Assembly (NCBI GenBank): GCA_013334485.1
Contig: JAAXXL010000008.1
Location: 1-59,219 of the forward strand
Direction of reading: 5' to 3'
Length of the DNA: 59,219 nucleotides
Source: Chlorobiaceae bacterium
GTDB lineage: Bacteria > Bacteroidota > Chlorobiia > Chlorobiales > Chlorobiaceae
Shown: in pieces, positions 49,783 to 54,825 of the stretch
Layout of the letters: each line of letters begins with the position of its first letter
Numbering within the stretch: the first letter of the stretch is position 1
The notes under the pieces: model-generated
What the model was told of the DNA's origin: nothing
Database searches by the model: none
The model's input: the letters and a program-made list of their open reading frames with translations, nothing else
Translations under genes and position numbers: made by a program

Positions 49783-50520
49783 ATGAAAAAACTCCTGCTT
49801 CTCCTCTTCATGCTCCTCTCTTTTACCGGAGCTACTGCTTCAGCCGCAGCGAAATTTACCGGCATCATGGATATGTCGCTAAAACTGCCGAGTGGGTCCG
49901 CACTGGTAACCTACACCTTCGGCAGCGGCACCCAGCGCATGGATATGCTCATGCGGATGAATAAAATACCTGAACCGCTGAAAACCTCCGTCATCACCAG
50001 AGCATCAAGCCCCGACCAGGCTTATATCATCAATCATGAAGCAAAAAACTACACAATAGTCAATCTCAAAACTGCTGCTGAAAACTCACTGCTGCTTGAT
50101 TTTGACACCAACTATAAACTTGCAAGGCTTGGAAAGCAGGTTATAAAAGGGTACACCTGCGAACATATCAGCCTGACCAGCACAACCGAAAAGCTCGAAC
50201 TCTGGGTAACACGCGACCTTGGTGATTTCTCGACATTCAGAATCCTTCAGTCCCAGAACCCCAGGCTCTCCAACACCTCACTCTCTCAAACCCTCAAGAG
50301 TTCGGGCATAGAGGGATTTCCCGTCAGGATAATCCAGAAGAACGATAACGGCCTCTATGTGCTGGAGCTCATCAAGATTCAGCCAAAAGCAGTTGCCGCT
50401 TCCGAATTTGCAGTCCCGAAAGGATACGTAAAGGTTGAAAACAACCAGAAACCCCTCGGCACGCAGCAGAAAGCGCATCTCAAAAACCTTATGGAAAAAA
50501 TGAAAAAGTTTGAAAAGTAG
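49783..50520 (+). CDS. Secreted DUF4412-type protein
   Basis: The product has 245 residues with a signal peptide MKKLLLLLFMLLSFTGATAS ending AAA. The mature protein has the pattern of LolA/DUF4412-like beta proteins: KFTGIMDMSLKLPSGSALVT, TFGSGTQRMDML, INHEAKNYTIVNLKTA and QVIKGYTCEHISLTSTTEKL then ELWVTRDLG. Such proteins are periplasmic, and function is not established. It lies divergent from prmC and stands alone. Confidence 0.75.
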   Translation: MKKLLLLLFMLLSFTGATASAAAKFTGIMDMSLKLPSGSALVTYTFGSGTQRMDMLMRMNKIPEPLKTSVITRASSPDQAYIINHEAKNYTIVNLKTAAENSLLLDFDTNYKLARLGKQVIKGYTCEHISLTSTTEKLELWVTRDLGDFSTFRILQSQNPRLSNTSLSQTLKSSGIEGFPVRIIQKNDNGLYVLELIKIQPKAVAASEFAVPKGYVKVENNQKPLGTQQKAHLKNLMEKMKKFEK

Positions 50521-50671
50521 GGTTTTGCGCTCTTGCTTGTCAGGAATGTAGCCGGGAACGCTGAGCCCCAGCTCGGCAAAAAAAGAATACTATGCGGAAC
50601 CGAAGAGCAATGAAATGGCGTAACAAGTGCAATTTGTTATGACCGTCCCGTCGGTAATTGGACAGGGCTGA

Positions 50672-51004
50672 CTACTCTGATTTTGGTTTAACCATTTGAA
50701 TAACCAGTTTCAACCCGCATGCAGTTGCATACCTGCGCAAGGTGTTGAGCGAAGGCGAATGATCCTGCTTGCCAAGACTGGATTCAATGCGAGCAAGAAC
50801 CGGCTGCGACACACCCATTCGTGATGCGACTTGTGCTTGCGTTAGTCCTGCCTGTAACCGGGCATCCAACAGCGCAGCCAGAGCAGCAAACTCATCTTCA
50901 AGCGCATCATATGCCACCCTGAATTCAGGATCATTGGCACATTTTTCGGCTGCTTCTTTACCCGGATTAAGCCGTACAGGTTTGTATGTGTTATCAACAC
51001 TCAT
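50672..51004 (-). CDS. HTH antitoxin of a HigBA-like pair
   Basis: From ATG 51004 the product has 110 residues. The N-terminus is MSVDNTYKPVRLNPGKEAAE. A Cro/C1 helix-turn-helix follows: GLTQAQVASRMGVSQPVLAR then IESSLGKQDHSPSLNTLRRY. The C-terminal strand LKLVIQMV is usual for these antitoxins. The start overlaps the toxin stop by ATGA (51001-51004). It sits just downstream of the TIR-protein cluster on the same strand. Confidence 0.9.
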   Translation of the reverse strand: MSVDNTYKPVRLNPGKEAAEKCANDPEFRVAYDALEDEFAALAALLDARLQAGLTQAQVASRMGVSQPVLARIESSLGKQDHSPSLNTLRRYATACGLKLVIQMVKPKSE

Positions 51005-51324
51005 GAGCTGATCTCTTTTTGCCTTTTTCTGGCAAGGTTTAATTCTCTGACAGGGGTTTTCTGTGTCTTTTTGACAAACCCGTGTAAAATGACGACATGA
51101 CGGCCTGTAAGCGAGCAAAAAAATGCTCTCCCTATTCCTTCAGGGCCTTTTGCTCTGATTTCAAACAATCCATTCCCGAAAGGTCGAGTATAGGGAAGAC
51201 CAAGATTAGGTCCAGTCTGCTCAATTTGTTTGGTAATCCTGAAAAAACAAGCATGTATGCCTTTCGGCCACCCATCGATATCCTTCTTGACGGAACTATT
51301 GTAATAATCTATCACATAATTCAT
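51001..51324 (-). CDS. HigB/RelE-like toxin (phage Gp49-type)
   Basis: The product has 107 residues. It fits the Gp49/HigB family: IHACFFRITKQIEQTGPNLG, LPYTRPFGNGLFEIRAKGPE, GIGRAFFCSLTGRHVVILHG then FVKKTQKTP. The conserved ending KTQKTP and ELNLARKRQKE is typical. These toxins cut mRNA at the ribosome. It leads an intact pair with the antitoxin, overlapping by 4 bases. Confidence 0.9.
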   Translation of the reverse strand: MNYVIDYYNSSVKKDIDGWPKGIHACFFRITKQIEQTGPNLGLPYTRPFGNGLFEIRAKGPEGIGRAFFCSLTGRHVVILHGFVKKTQKTPVRELNLARKRQKEISS

Positions 51325-51398
51325 ACCTAATTATACCCTGTATGCTATTAACATGCAAGTTAAATATATTGAGACACCCTAACCCTCATGTCTGATCA

Positions 51399-52400
51399 TC
51401 AAGCTTTCAAATCCCGCAAGAGGCGATTGAATGCCTTTTGGTAGGTATCGTGCTGTTTCCATTGGGTAAAGTCGCCGATATGCCGCTGGCGCTTCACGTT
51501 TCCTGCCCATCCGGTTGTGCTCTCCATTATCTCTTCATCAATGCGTACCGGGAAGAGAACCGTTTTCTTTCGCTCTGTTTCAAGGCTGAGGGCATGCTCG
51601 ACTTCATGCTCAACCCAATCGCTTTGCACGGAGTGTTCTGACAGGATCAAAAGAAGCTTGTCATGAACACGGATTGAATCGTCGATTGAGGGGCGAATTT
51701 TATCGCCGATCTTCAAATCATGCGGAGCAAACCAGCAGCGCACACCTTTTGCCTGCAAATCATTATGCAGCCGCTTTGCAAACTCTTCATCCAAGTGGCT
51801 ATAACTGATAAAGCATGAATAGTATTCAATACCTTTGCCGATCAGAGAGGGGATATAGGCAATAAACTCATTCGACAAGCCGCAACCTCTAAGAAAGACT
51901 TCAGGAATGTTGCCTTTGGAGTTGTACAGGGTGTCGATACCAATAGAGGAAGGACCTTTATGTTGGACTGTGTCAAGACCTTTTACCAGTTGAAAATCAA
52001 CATCATTAAAAGTCGAAAAAGCAACTATTGATCCACTGAAATCGCACTTATCTAACTTAGCTCCTTTGAAGCAAGTCCCATTCAAATCTGCATTTATCAA
52101 ATCTGCCCCATTCAATTTTGTTCCTCGTAAGTAGGCTCCCCTCAACAAAGCATTTTTTAAATCCGATCCACTTAAATCGGCAGCAAACAGATTCGCACCA
52201 CATAAATTAGCTGCTTGAAGATATGCACCACACAAAATCGCACCTTTCAAATCTGTATTTTGTAAAGCACTTCTGTGAAGATTTTCATTGCTGAAATTAG
52301 CCTCGCTTAAGTTCGGAATTATATACGGATGCTCTTTTCTCCATTCATTCCAAATCCCAACACCCTGCTTCAGTATTTCGAGATGCTCTTGATTCGCCAT
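51399..52400 (-). CDS. Pentapeptide-repeat protein with C-terminal TIR domain
   Basis: The product has 333 residues, no signal peptide. Residues about 31-137 are pentapeptide repeats A(D/N)LxG (for example LQAANLCGANLFAADLSGSD), forming a square beta helix. A linker with EVFLRGCGLSNEFIAYIPSL follows. Residues 192-330 are a TIR domain: YSCFISYSHLDEEFAKRLHN, DLQAKGVRCWFAPHDLKIGD, LLLILSEHSVQSDWVEHEVE. E266, four residues after W262, matches the catalytic glutamate position of TIR NADases. Bacterial TIR proteins often act in antiphage defence by NAD degradation or signalling. It lies between two toxin-antitoxin pairs. A defence role is inference. Confidence 0.88.
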   Translation of the reverse strand: MANQEHLEILKQGVGIWNEWRKEHPYIIPNLSEANFSNENLHRSALQNTDLKGAILCGAYLQAANLCGANLFAADLSGSDLKNALLRGAYLRGTKLNGADLINADLNGTCFKGAKLDKCDFSGSIVAFSTFNDVDFQLVKGLDTVQHKGPSSIGIDTLYNSKGNIPEVFLRGCGLSNEFIAYIPSLIGKGIEYYSCFISYSHLDEEFAKRLHNDLQAKGVRCWFAPHDLKIGDKIRPSIDDSIRVHDKLLLILSEHSVQSDWVEHEVEHALSLETERKKTVLFPVRIDEEIMESTTGWAGNVKRQRHIGDFTQWKQHDTYQKAFNRLLRDLKA

Positions 52401-52574
52401 TTTGATTGATTAGGTCAGTTTATCGTGTTGACAATCCATTCCCTTTAAAAACAGCAAGAAAACGAGCAATGAAGAAACTGTTCATTGCTAAATATAACGT
52501 ATTAGCCGGAATCTGGGGATGAAGCTCAGGGTATTGCTTTTTTTTTCGTCCACGAACAGGGCTCTGTTCAATGT

Positions 52575-52856
52575 TTATTGCGGAAACTCCTGGGCAGTGT
52601 GAAAAACAGTAAGAATCGTCACGGTGTTCTGGCGAACCGTGTAGACGACAAAATAGGGGCTGTCGGAAAAGAGCAGCTCACGTGTACCCACAAGACGTCC
52701 CGGTTTTCCGCTGTCAGGATAGGTGGAGAGCTGGGTTGCAGCTTTATTGATAATTGAAAGCGTTATCTCTTTTGCCGCAGCCGGATTCTCCTGGGCGATA
52801 TAGGCCTCAATCTCTTCGAGACGTCTCTTTGCTTTTTCAGTCCACTGTACCTGCAA
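52575..52856 (-). CDS. ParE/RelE-family toxin
   Basis: The 93-residue product starts at TTG 52856, which overlaps the antitoxin end by 20 bases; no ATG or GTG is available. It fits ParE/RelE: VQWTEKAKRRLEEIEAYIAQ, NPAAAKEITLSIINKAATQL, YPDSGKPGRLVGTRELLFSD, PYFVVYTVRQNTVTILTVFH. The family includes gyrase poisons (ParE) and mRNA cutters (RelE), not separable here. It pairs with the upstream antitoxin. Confidence 0.9.
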   Translation of the reverse strand: MQVQWTEKAKRRLEEIEAYIAQENPAAAKEITLSIINKAATQLSTYPDSGKPGRLVGTRELLFSDSPYFVVYTVRQNTVTILTVFHTAQEFPQ

Positions 52857-53109
52857 CCTTACCCTCCCAGAGTTTGGTCATCTCTTCCTGCGGGATAACG
52901 TTACCCGCATCAAGGTCATCAAGCCCTGCCTGAATGCTTTTGATCTGCCATTCATTTATTGAGAGGTAATGGTTGATGGCCTCTTCGATAACAAAGGTTT
53001 TTGATCTTCTGGTTGCCTGAGCAAGTTGTTCAATCCGTTGTTTCGTGTTCGCTGCAATTTTGAAACTGACCTGCTCCCGAACGTCCTTTCTCTTTGCTGC
53101 TGGTACCAT
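52837..53109 (-). CDS. Ribbon-helix-helix (CopG/RelB-type) antitoxin
   Basis: The product has 90 residues with a good AGGAG site before ATG 53109. The ribbon-helix-helix part is EQVSFKIAANTKQRIEQLAQ and SKTFVIEEAINHYLSI. The acidic C-terminus (IQAGLDDLDAGNVIPQEEMT) would wrap the toxin. It overlaps and precedes the ParE/RelE toxin, and a small palindrome lies 31 bases upstream of the start. Confidence 0.9.
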   Translation of the reverse strand: MVPAAKRKDVREQVSFKIAANTKQRIEQLAQATRRSKTFVIEEAINHYLSINEWQIKSIQAGLDDLDAGNVIPQEEMTKLWEGKVAGTVD

Positions 53110-53140
53110 CCCTACTCCTGCAATTAGTTTGTATTTCGAC

Positions 53141-53157
53141 GTATTTCACTAAAATAC
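53141..53157 (-). promoter_or_regulatory. Palindrome upstream of the ParE/RelE antitoxin (candidate operator)
   Basis: GTATTT-N5-AAATAC forms 6-base arms, with a further GTATTT half-site 10 bases away at 53131. Ribbon-helix-helix antitoxins bind such short, phased half-sites, so this is a likely autoregulatory operator. Confidence 0.45.
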
Positions 53158-53379
53158 CGAAAACAAGAAAAGTAACAAAGGGTTCTTTCGGAATCGGAGC
53201 GTATGCCCTGCAAATAATTATACGAACCTGAAGTTCAGGTTTTTTTGCATCCAAGAGTCTGCTTTTTTGTATGTTTAGCAACAGGTTTTGCTGCTCGTCT
53301 GTGACTTTTTGCAAATGATCGGCGGCAAAACCATGACAAAATGTTTCTCTCCTGTTAACTCATTCAACTGTATAAAGAA

Positions 53380-54825
53380 GTGGCAGATAAAATCACAACA
53401 AGAACCGAGGACTACTCCCAGTGGTATATTGACCTTGTCCGCTCAGCAAAACTGGCTGACTACTCCGATGTACGGGGCTGTATGGTCATCAGACCGAACG
53501 GCTACGCGATATGGGAGAAGATGCAGGTCGCCCTTGACCGGATGTTCAAGGAGACCGGGCACGTCAACGCATACTTTCCGCTCTTTATTCCTGAAAGCTT
53601 TATCGCCAAGGAGGCCGAACACATTGAAGGATTTGCTCCCGAATGTGCGGTTGTTACCCATGGCGGGGGCGAGGAACTGGCCGAAAAGCTCTATGTACGA
53701 CCAACTTCTGAAACCATCATCTGGTCATCCTATAAAAAGTGGATACAGTCCTACCGTGACCTGCCGATACTGATCAACCAGTGGGCAAACGTTGTACGCT
53801 GGGAGATGAGAACACGGCTCTTCCTCAGAACAACCGAGTTTCTCTGGCAGGAGGGCCATACCGCACACGCCACCCCTGAAGAGTCACAGGAGGAGGTAAT
53901 GCGTATGATCAACGTTTACAAAACCTTTGCCGAAGAGTATATGGCCATGCCTGTCATTATGGGAAAGAAAACCAACAGCGAAAAGTTTGCCGGAGCGGTT
54001 GAAACCTACTGCATTGAAGCGATGATGCAGGATACCAAAGCTCTCCAGGCAGGCACCTCCCACAATCTCGGCCAGAACTTCGCCAAGGCCTTCGACTGCC
54101 AGTTCCAGACAAAGGAGAGCACGCTTGACTATGTATGGGCAACAAGCTGGGGAGTCTCGACACGGCTGATCGGCGCATTGATCATGGCCCATTCAGACGA
54201 CCGTGGTCTGGTGCTGCCTCCAAAACTTGCTACCCGCCAGGTTGTAATCATCCCGATTCTCAGAGGCGACAAAGCTGCTGTGCTTGCAAAGGCCGAGGCT
54301 ATTGCCGACTTGCTGAAACAGAGCGGCATACCAACCTTTGTTGACGGAAGTGAACAGAACTCCCCCGGCTGGAAGTTTGCTGAGTATGAGCTTCAGGGCA
54401 TTCCGATCCGTATTGAGCTCGGCCCGAGAGATATCGAAAACAACATCTGCATTGCCGCACGCCGCGACACGCTTGAAAAAACAGAACTTTCGCTGGACGA
54501 CACCCTGCCGCTGAAAATCAGTGAAATCCTTAACGGCATTCAGCAGAACCTTTATGACCGGGCGCTCATCTTCCGTGATGAAAACACCTTTGAAGTTGCA
54601 AGTTACGATGAGTTCAAGGTTGCCGTTGAAAAGGGATTTGTGATCGCGTACTGGGACGGCACAGCGGAGACAGAAGCAAAAATCAAGGAGGAGACGAAAT
54701 CAACCATTCGTGTGCTCCCTGAAGAGGCCGACTATATTGAGCGCTACAATATGCGCACACCGGGAACCTGTATCTATTCAGGCAAACCCGCCGCACAGAA
54801 AGCGGTCTTCGCCAAAGCCTACTGA
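53380..54825 (+). CDS. proS: Prolyl-tRNA synthetase
   Basis: The 481-residue enzyme starts at GTG 53380 and is of the shorter, eukaryote/archaeon-like ProS class that lacks the bacterial editing insert. Class II motifs are seen: motif 2 [20 protein letters not shown], motif 3 near [18 protein letters not shown] with the C-terminal anticodon domain (VVIIPILRG). The N-terminal [20 protein letters not shown] is typical. It charges tRNAPro. It converges with the peroxiredoxin gene at a strong hairpin. Confidence 0.96.

What the first reader, a model, noticed from the sequence alone, without database searches (positions are those of the whole stretch)
50672..53109. Pentapeptide-TIR protein between two intact toxin-antitoxin pairs: candidate defence unit
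All five genes lie on one strand within 2.4 kb: RHH antitoxin-ParE/RelE toxin, pentapeptide-TIR, HigB-HigA. The TIR domain keeps the glutamate expected of NAD-consuming enzymes. A square beta-helix sensor joined to TIR suggests recognition of a DNA-like or protein surface, since some pentapeptide proteins mimic DNA. The mechanism would differ from the well-known STING-, Thoeris- and SIR2-linked systems. This is the best candidate in the window for a poorly described system.
Basis: partly seen in the sequence, partly recalled or inferred. Interest (0 to 1): 0.65.

Follow-up and report, generated by a model that had tools for sequence, protein, structure and literature searches.

The report
Pentapeptide-TIR receptor with swappable sensor
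A green sulfur bacterium carries a one-gene, phage-defence-like protein whose NAD-destroying end is strongly conserved while its repeat 'sensor' end differs almost completely between relatives; the two toxin-antitoxin pairs beside it look like neighbours in a crowded insertion hotspot, not partners.

Summary
In detail: five minus-strand genes at 50672-53109 (HigA, HigB, pentapeptide-TIR, ParE/RelE, RHH), with E266 at the TIR catalytic position (equivalent to AbTIR E208) and invariant in 23/23 homologues. The 'unit' is not supported. The closest relatives have an empty site (DUF4412 and proS about 52-56 bp apart), and this junction holds different TA or defence genes in four other Chlorobium genomes. 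The RHH-ParE pair was not seen beside any other copy. HigBA is independently widespread but is near 4 of 14 Chlorobium copies. New here: (1) the repeat domain is hypervariable (36% identity, 70-180 aa) against TIR (80%); a core repeat protein of the same genus does not show this (76%). (2) In one MAG, two tandem copies share a TIR tract with almost no synonymous differences but different sensors. (3) In three Chlorobium genomes the gene starts 43-47 bp after a type ISP restriction-modification gene; all nine readable ends of that enzyme clade are followed by the gene or its 3' remnant. (4) Copies occur on phage contigs. The DNA-mimic idea fails here (net charge 0); defence-gene enrichment was not seen across 37 loci. 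Best reading: a single-gene, probably NAD+-consuming abortive-infection receptor, like SpbK in logic. Activity is untested.

The parts
50521..53379 (.). Whole insertion between DUF4412 gene (49783-50520) and proS (53380-54825)
   Evidence: Closest relatives G169 and G221 have DUF4412 and proS 52-56 bp apart with no insert (L090/L091)
50552..50577 (+). Copy of a dispersed palindromic repeat at the left edge of the cluster
   Evidence: 8 copies in own genome with up to 3 mismatches, 0 for the reversed-control pattern; also near pTIR copies and 3' remnants in other Chlorobium genomes
50672..51004 (-). HigA-type antitoxin (XRE/HTH_3, 110 aa)
   Evidence: orthologues at 71-90% identity in about 20 of 65 Chlorobium genomes, most not near pTIR
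51001..51324 (-). HigB-type toxin (Gp49/DUF891, 107 aa)
   Evidence: full-length Pfam Gp49 match 2e-24; same pTIR-HigB-HigA order in G185
51399..52400 (-). Pentapeptide-repeat-TIR protein (pTIR), 333 aa
52317..52400 (-). pTIR N-cap (aa 1-28): conserved 'MANQEHLEILKQGVxxWNxWR' two-helix cap
   Evidence: alignment A1, AF2 helices 4-11 and 14-23
52017..52316 (-). pTIR pentapeptide-repeat sensor (aa 29-128, 20 repeats), hypervariable between relatives
51837..52016 (-). pTIR conserved linker (aa 129-188), no Pfam family; invariant L142, H147, S151, F169, L170, G174
   Evidence: in 296 genomes of the phylum it is essentially confined to pTIR or truncated pTIR-like proteins
51402..51836 (-). pTIR TIR domain (aa 189-333)
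   Evidence: TIR_2 2e-25; 80% mean identity between Chlorobium copies
51603..51605 (-). Codon of E266, predicted catalytic glutamate
   Evidence: PMC10022894
52575..52856 (-). ParE/RelE-family toxin, 93 aa
   Evidence: ParE_toxin 3e-16, RelE_StbE 4e-10 above cut-off
52837..53109 (-). Ribbon-helix-helix antitoxin, 90 aa, overlaps the toxin gene by 20 bp
   Evidence: RHH_1 1e-5; RelB-like family below its cut-off

Best explanation
pTIR is a self-contained sensor-effector. The two-helix N-cap and square pentapeptide beta-helix recognise an infection-associated protein. The conserved linker transmits binding, and the TIR domains assemble and use E266 to consume NAD+ (or make a cADPR-type product), stopping the infected cell. 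Sensor variety is generated by fast divergence and by recombination in the conserved TIR/linker part, which puts different repeat arrays on the same effector. The gene moves by horizontal transfer, in Chlorobium often next to a type ISP R-M gene. HigBA and RHH-ParE are separate addiction modules that share the DUF4412-proS hotspot and at most help retain the island. Shown by sequence: architecture, catalytic residue, divergence pattern, R-M linkage, empty site. Inferred: NADase activity, phage trigger, abortive outcome.
For: E266, W262, W223 and S254 invariant in 23 homologues from several phyla; E266 aligns with AbTIR E208. AF2: rigid beta-helix, structured linker, TIR of lower confidence. 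Sensor 36% identity and pN 0.45 against TIR 80% and pN 0.12, with a control PPR protein at 76% and pN 0.16 at similar pS; repeat surface positions i+1/i+2 are 20-23% identical against 54-60% in the control. The tandem pair in G297 has 6 of about 90 synonymous differences in TIR against 38 of about 80 in PPR, Fisher p=6e-10. Patchy: full-length in 11 of 65 Chlorobium genomes, remnants in others. ISP R-M directly upstream in three genomes, and 9/9 ISP clade-A 3' ends followed by pTIR or its remnant. On viral contigs with capsid, terminase or tape-measure genes. The hotspot elsewhere holds Cas1-like, WYL, PemK, HicA and HigB genes.
Against: No biochemical or phage data. Across 37 homologous loci the neighbours are mostly housekeeping and PADLOC hits are no denser than in 20 random regions of the same genomes. 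Two copies in one genome and up to three per genome in Chlorobaculum-like relatives could mean a housekeeping or stress role. The R-M linkage may be one ancestral event inherited and decaying. Part of the sensor variation can come from repeat slippage. The tandem-copy tract is from a MAG with 7% contamination and could be an assembly artefact.
Confidence: 0.55

Rival explanations
1. The five genes form one functional defence unit in which the TA pairs are controlled by, or guard, the pentapeptide-TIR protein.
For: All five genes on one strand in 2.4 kb. pTIR-HigB-HigA in the same order in G185, and a HigA orthologue 0.8-1.2 kb downstream in G117 and G280; 4 of 14 Chlorobium copies near HigA where 0.008 are expected at random.
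Against: RHH-ParE not seen beside any other copy. HigA orthologues are mostly far from pTIR. Most pTIR loci have neither pair. The linkage is explained by shared hotspots rich in TA genes and by common ancestry of the insert.
Confidence: 0.08
2. pTIR is an R-M companion (PrrC-like guard): it watches the type ISP enzyme and fires when phage anti-restriction proteins block it. The window copy is a detached descendant.
For: pTIR starts 43-47 bp after the ISP gene in three genomes, and 9/9 clade-A ISP 3' ends are followed by pTIR or its remnant. An HsdR gene ends 4 bp upstream in an Anaerolineales copy. Own genome has a full ISP gene on another contig.
Against: The window copy and most distant homologues have no R-M neighbour. 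The own-genome ISP gene belongs to a clade followed by other genes. pTIR decays while ISP stays intact in several loci.
Confidence: 0.15
3. Not a defence gene: a regulatory or scaffold pentapeptide-TIR protein in housekeeping physiology, as for the core pentapeptide-membrane protein of the same genus.
For: Neighbours mostly housekeeping and no PADLOC enrichment; several copies per genome in a sister genus; a related N-cap/PPR module is fused to a membrane domain in most Chlorobium genomes.
Against: Patchy distribution, frequent decay, phage-borne copies, extreme sensor divergence not seen in the core relative, invariant catalytic residues.
Confidence: 0.17
4. A stand-alone toxin or addiction gene: TIR NADase kept in check by a cognate partner, with the repeat domain as an antitoxin docking surface.
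For: It lies among TA modules, and TIR NADases are toxic when active (PMC10022894).
Against: No conserved small partner gene next to pTIR across loci.
Confidence: 0.05

Closest known systems
SpbK (Bacillus subtilis ICEBs1; PMC12847820)
   Same: Single-gene protein with an N-terminal recognition domain, flexible linker and C-terminal TIR NADase; abortive infection after binding a phage protein (portal YonE)
   Different: Recognition domain not described as a pentapeptide beta-helix; pTIR trigger and activity unknown; no hypervariable sensor family was described in the passages read
AbTIR (Acinetobacter baumannii TIR NADase; PDB 8g83/7uxu)
   Same: Closest solved TIR by sequence (8e-11); catalytic Glu and the preceding Trp are at the same positions
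   Different: No pentapeptide domain
Thoeris ThsB (capsid-sensing TIR; PMC12578639)
   Same: TIR NADase acting as infection sensor; Pfam ThsB_TIR matches weakly (1e-7)
   Different: Needs a ThsA effector gene; no ThsA was found next to pTIR; no sensor solenoid
Swarozyc / DUF4062 (PMC13174449, preprint)
   Same: TIR-like NADase with an auxiliary sensing domain, triggered by phage portal; about half have a defence neighbour
   Different: TIR family and auxiliary domain differ
PDC-S66 (PADLOC candidate)
   Same: Best PADLOC match (3e-15)
   Different: Match covers only aa 192-285 (TIR); the rest of the model is unmatched
MfpA/Qnr pentapeptide proteins
   Same: Same right-handed quadrilateral beta-helix (fold search)
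   Different: Those act as DNA-like gyrase inhibitors or protectors (general knowledge); this sensor has no net charge and is fused to TIR
PrrC/EcoprrI (R-M guard)
   Same: A lethal effector gene placed at an R-M locus (from general knowledge)
   Different: PrrC is an anticodon nuclease inside a type I hsd locus; pTIR is a TIR after a type ISP gene, and the link is only by position

Membership tests
TIR-domain NADases | TIR fold domain recognised by curated profile | tested here: met
   TIR_2 90 bits against cut-off 28; AF2 alternating strand/helix TIR layout aa 195-332
TIR-domain NADases | Catalytic glutamate at the AbTIR E208 position, conserved in the family | tested here: met
TIR-domain NADases | NAD+ cleavage in vitro or in cells | not testable with these tools
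   needs protein
Pentapeptide-repeat proteins | Tandem A(D/N)LXX repeats forming a square beta-helix | tested here: met
   20 repeats in register; pLDDT 95-98; PDB beta-helix hits
DNA-mimic pentapeptide proteins (MfpA/Qnr type) | Strongly acidic, DNA-like surface | tested here: not met
   net charge 0 over the window's repeats; -14 to +1 per 100 aa in relatives
Thoeris | ThsA effector gene next to the TIR gene | tested here: not met
   no SIR2/SLOG or other ThsA-type gene among the window's neighbours or recognised in the related loci examined
SpbK-like single-gene TIR defence | Sensor domain plus TIR in one protein, no required partner gene | tested here: met
   no conserved neighbour across loci
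SpbK-like single-gene TIR defence | Recognition domain homologous to the SpbK N-terminal domain | not tested
   no direct comparison run; the N-terminal part is classified by Pfam as pentapeptide repeats
Defence-island gene | Neighbourhood enriched in defence genes over random regions | tested here: inconclusive
   not enriched across 37 loci (ORFs over 1200 aa left out); strong type ISP R-M link within one Chlorobium subclade
Type II TA modules (HigBA, ParDE/RelBE) | Adjacent overlapping toxin and antitoxin genes with family profiles | tested here: met
One functional TA-TIR-TA unit | Same gene set conserved around pTIR | tested here: not met

The most novel reading that the evidence does not exclude
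A bacterial innate receptor family that diversifies by swapping hypervariable pentapeptide sensor arrays onto a shared TIR NADase through gene conversion, and that occupies an exchangeable 'companion slot' behind type ISP restriction enzymes, firing when restriction is blocked or a phage protein is sensed.
Probability: 0.17. Interest if true: 0.8.

Novelty: new variant of a known kind. Interest (0 to 1): 0.5.

Why it matters
Single-gene TIR receptors are known, but a family with a constant TIR and linker and a rapidly changing solenoid sensor, together with a same-genus control showing this is not a general trait of such repeats, would give a natural set of variants for asking what bacterial TIR receptors recognise. 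The R-M linkage also makes a guard hypothesis directly testable.

Tried and rejected
Five-gene unit: rejected by context in other genomes. DNA-mimic sensor: charge test negative. Family-wide defence-island enrichment: tested with 214 neighbours against 139 control proteins and not seen; ORFs over 1200 aa were left out there, which hid the ISP enzyme, and this was found later by reading the loci. Thoeris-type ThsA partner: none recognised. Conserved linker as a shuffled module: it was found only in pTIR or in truncated pTIR-like proteins. Short 3'-end copies were first suspected to be integron-like cassette sites; they read as decayed pTIR 3' ends, often beside a palindromic repeat. Plasmid and phage-genome collections gave no full-length copy; a plasmid TIR piece (Skermanella) follows two IS256 genes and a separate pentapeptide gene. 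Literature searches found no paper on pentapeptide-TIR defence in the held library.

Full report
What is there. The window is part of a Chlorobium genome (G000, 2.59 Mb in 130 contigs; the genus is inferred from its closest relatives). Five minus-strand genes lie between a DUF4412 gene and proS: HigA 50672-51004, HigB (Gp49) 51001-51324, the pentapeptide-TIR gene (pTIR) 51399-52400, a ParE/RelE toxin 52575-52856 and an RHH antitoxin 52837-53109. Both TA pairs overlap as TA genes normally do and match their families over full length or above cut-off.

The protein. pTIR has four parts: a two-helix N-cap (aa 1-28, motif WNxWR), 20 pentapeptide repeats (aa 29-128), a conserved linker (aa 129-188) without a Pfam family, and a TIR domain (aa 189-333). 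AF2 on 23 homologues gives pLDDT 95-98 for cap and solenoid, 91-98 for most of the linker and 56-93 for TIR. The PDB fold search returned pentapeptide solenoids only in its top 50; the TIR relation rests on sequence (Pfam 2e-25, AbTIR 8e-11). E266 aligns with AbTIR E208, shown to be catalytic in the literature (PMC10022894), and is invariant in 23/23 homologues, as are W262, W223 and S254. NADase activity is therefore likely but inferred.

The neighbours. In the two closest genomes, G169 and G221 (proS 97% identical), DUF4412 and proS are 52-56 bp apart, so 50521-53379 is an insertion. In 16 genomes examined the junction is empty (gaps up to about 330 bp). In others it holds different genes: a PemK/MazF-type pair (G024), HigB plus a HTH/ImmA-type gene (G117), WYL, exonuclease, Cas1-like and HicA genes (G010), and pTIR-HigB-HigA plus R-M pieces in opposite orientation relative to proS (G185). 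This is a hotspot. The RHH-ParE pair was not found beside another pTIR. HigA orthologues at 71-90% identity occur in about 20 of 65 Chlorobium genomes and mostly far from pTIR, though 4 of 14 pTIR copies have one within about 1.2 kb. Common descent of an insert or shared hotspots explain this; a functional unit is not needed.

Distribution. pTIR is patchy: full-length copies in 11 of 65 Chlorobium genomes, with 3'-end remnants in several more; 25 of 296 genomes of the phylum, in 6 of 139 genera; and scattered members in Acidobacteriota, Chloroflexota and Verrucomicrobiota. Six viral contigs carry relatives; two of them also carry capsid genes with a terminase or tape-measure gene, and a third carries integrase, primase and SSB genes. 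Across 37 loci, neighbours within 3.5 kb are mostly housekeeping and PADLOC hits are not more frequent than in 20 random regions of the same genomes.

R-M linkage. Reading the Chlorobium loci showed what that scan had excluded by length. In three genomes (G117, G311, G302) pTIR starts 43-47 bp after a 1,600-aa type ISP R-M gene on the same strand (Type_ISP_C, ISP_coupler, Mrr_cat_2, ResIII, N6_Mtase; PADLOC type IIG). The G117 ISP gene carries a frame break, and the G302 pTIR copy is frameshifted. All nine ISP 3' ends of that clade with downstream sequence are followed by pTIR (3) or by a pTIR 3' remnant 0.7-1.3 kb away (6), with other small genes in between in several. In G185 a C-terminal remnant of the enzyme also sits right before its intact pTIR. 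A more distant ISP clade, including the window genome's own copy on contig C105, has other genes downstream. An Anaerolineales copy lies directly after HsdR. The link is real in one subclade but may be one ancestral arrangement; it suggests an exchangeable slot behind the R-M gene.

Sensor hypervariability. Among nine Chlorobium copies the repeat domain averages 36% identity (pN 0.45) and varies from 70 to 180 aa, against 80% (pN 0.12) for TIR, 65% for the linker and 63% for the N-cap. As a control, a core pentapeptide-membrane protein with the same N-cap in the same genus keeps 76% identity (pN 0.16) in its repeats at similar synonymous divergence and nearly constant length. In pTIR the outward positions i+1 and i+2 are 20-23% identical against 54-60% in the control, while the central residue stays 71% identical. 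In several pairs the TIR is also younger at synonymous sites than the sensor (p = 6e-10, 6e-5, 2e-3 and 3e-4). The sharpest case is a tandem pair in G297 with zero synonymous differences over about 125 codons of linker end and TIR, flanked by pS about 0.5. This indicates recombination putting different sensors on one TIR. For the window copy itself the contrast is nonsynonymous only (p = 0.13 and 1.0 at synonymous sites). Caveats: repeat slippage, saturation, and a possible assembly artefact in a MAG with 7% contamination.

Mechanism. The best-supported reading is a single-gene receptor: the solenoid surface binds an infection-associated partner, TIRs assemble, and NAD+ is consumed or converted to a signal, halting the infected cell, in the manner of SpbK with phage portal (PMC12847820) or Swarozyc (PMC13174449). 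Shown: anatomy, invariant catalytic residue, divergence pattern, mobility, R-M linkage in a subclade. Inferred: enzymatic activity, trigger and outcome. A nucleic-acid-mimic sensor is not favoured for this copy, because its repeat domain has net charge 0.

Verdict. The TA pairs are most likely passengers. The new and more interesting features are the constant-effector, variable-sensor pattern and the type ISP R-M linkage. It is a new variant of a known kind (single-gene TIR immune receptors), with activity untested.

Noticed in passing
L017 3386-3505, L011 5547-5690, L026 8001-8358, L028 7050-7181, L030 3187-3306: Isolated 3' ends of pTIR (40-120 codons, also shorter pieces) are scattered in Chlorobium genomes next to TA modules and downstream of type ISP genes, often beside a palindromic repeat; they look like remnants after cargo replacement.
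   Followed up: partly
window 50552-50577 and G000 contigs C67, C71, C77, C98, C46, C89: Dispersed palindromic repeat CCGGGAACGCYGAGCYCCAGCTYGGC, eight copies in the genome; marks the left edge of the inserted cluster.
   Followed up: partly
G000:C46:12-953 (L184): Second pTIR copy in the same genome (about 70% identical, different sensor) at a contig edge, upstream of unrelated genes and a HicA-like gene.
   Followed up: partly
L003 and orthologues L161-L173: Core Chlorobium protein of about 357 aa: the same WNxWR N-cap and pentapeptide repeats fused to a membrane domain; conserved, function unknown.
   Followed up: partly
L180 4410-8714: Three pentapeptide genes in tandem in G297; two have nearly identical TIR domains, the third has no TIR match.
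   Followed up: yes
L108 2559-5104: In G010 the DUF4412-proS hotspot region carries a Cas1-like gene, a DEDD exonuclease and a WYL regulator in a row.
   Followed up: no
L011 11-2320: Two genes directly upstream of a pTIR; the first has a partial ADP-ribose glycohydrolase-like match (2CompARG, 6e-9), of possible interest beside a TIR NADase.
   Followed up: no
window 51330-51335: Perfect TATAAT in the 74-bp gap before HigB, suggesting HigBA may have its own promoter; the promoter scan did not list it because its -35 is weak.
   Followed up: no
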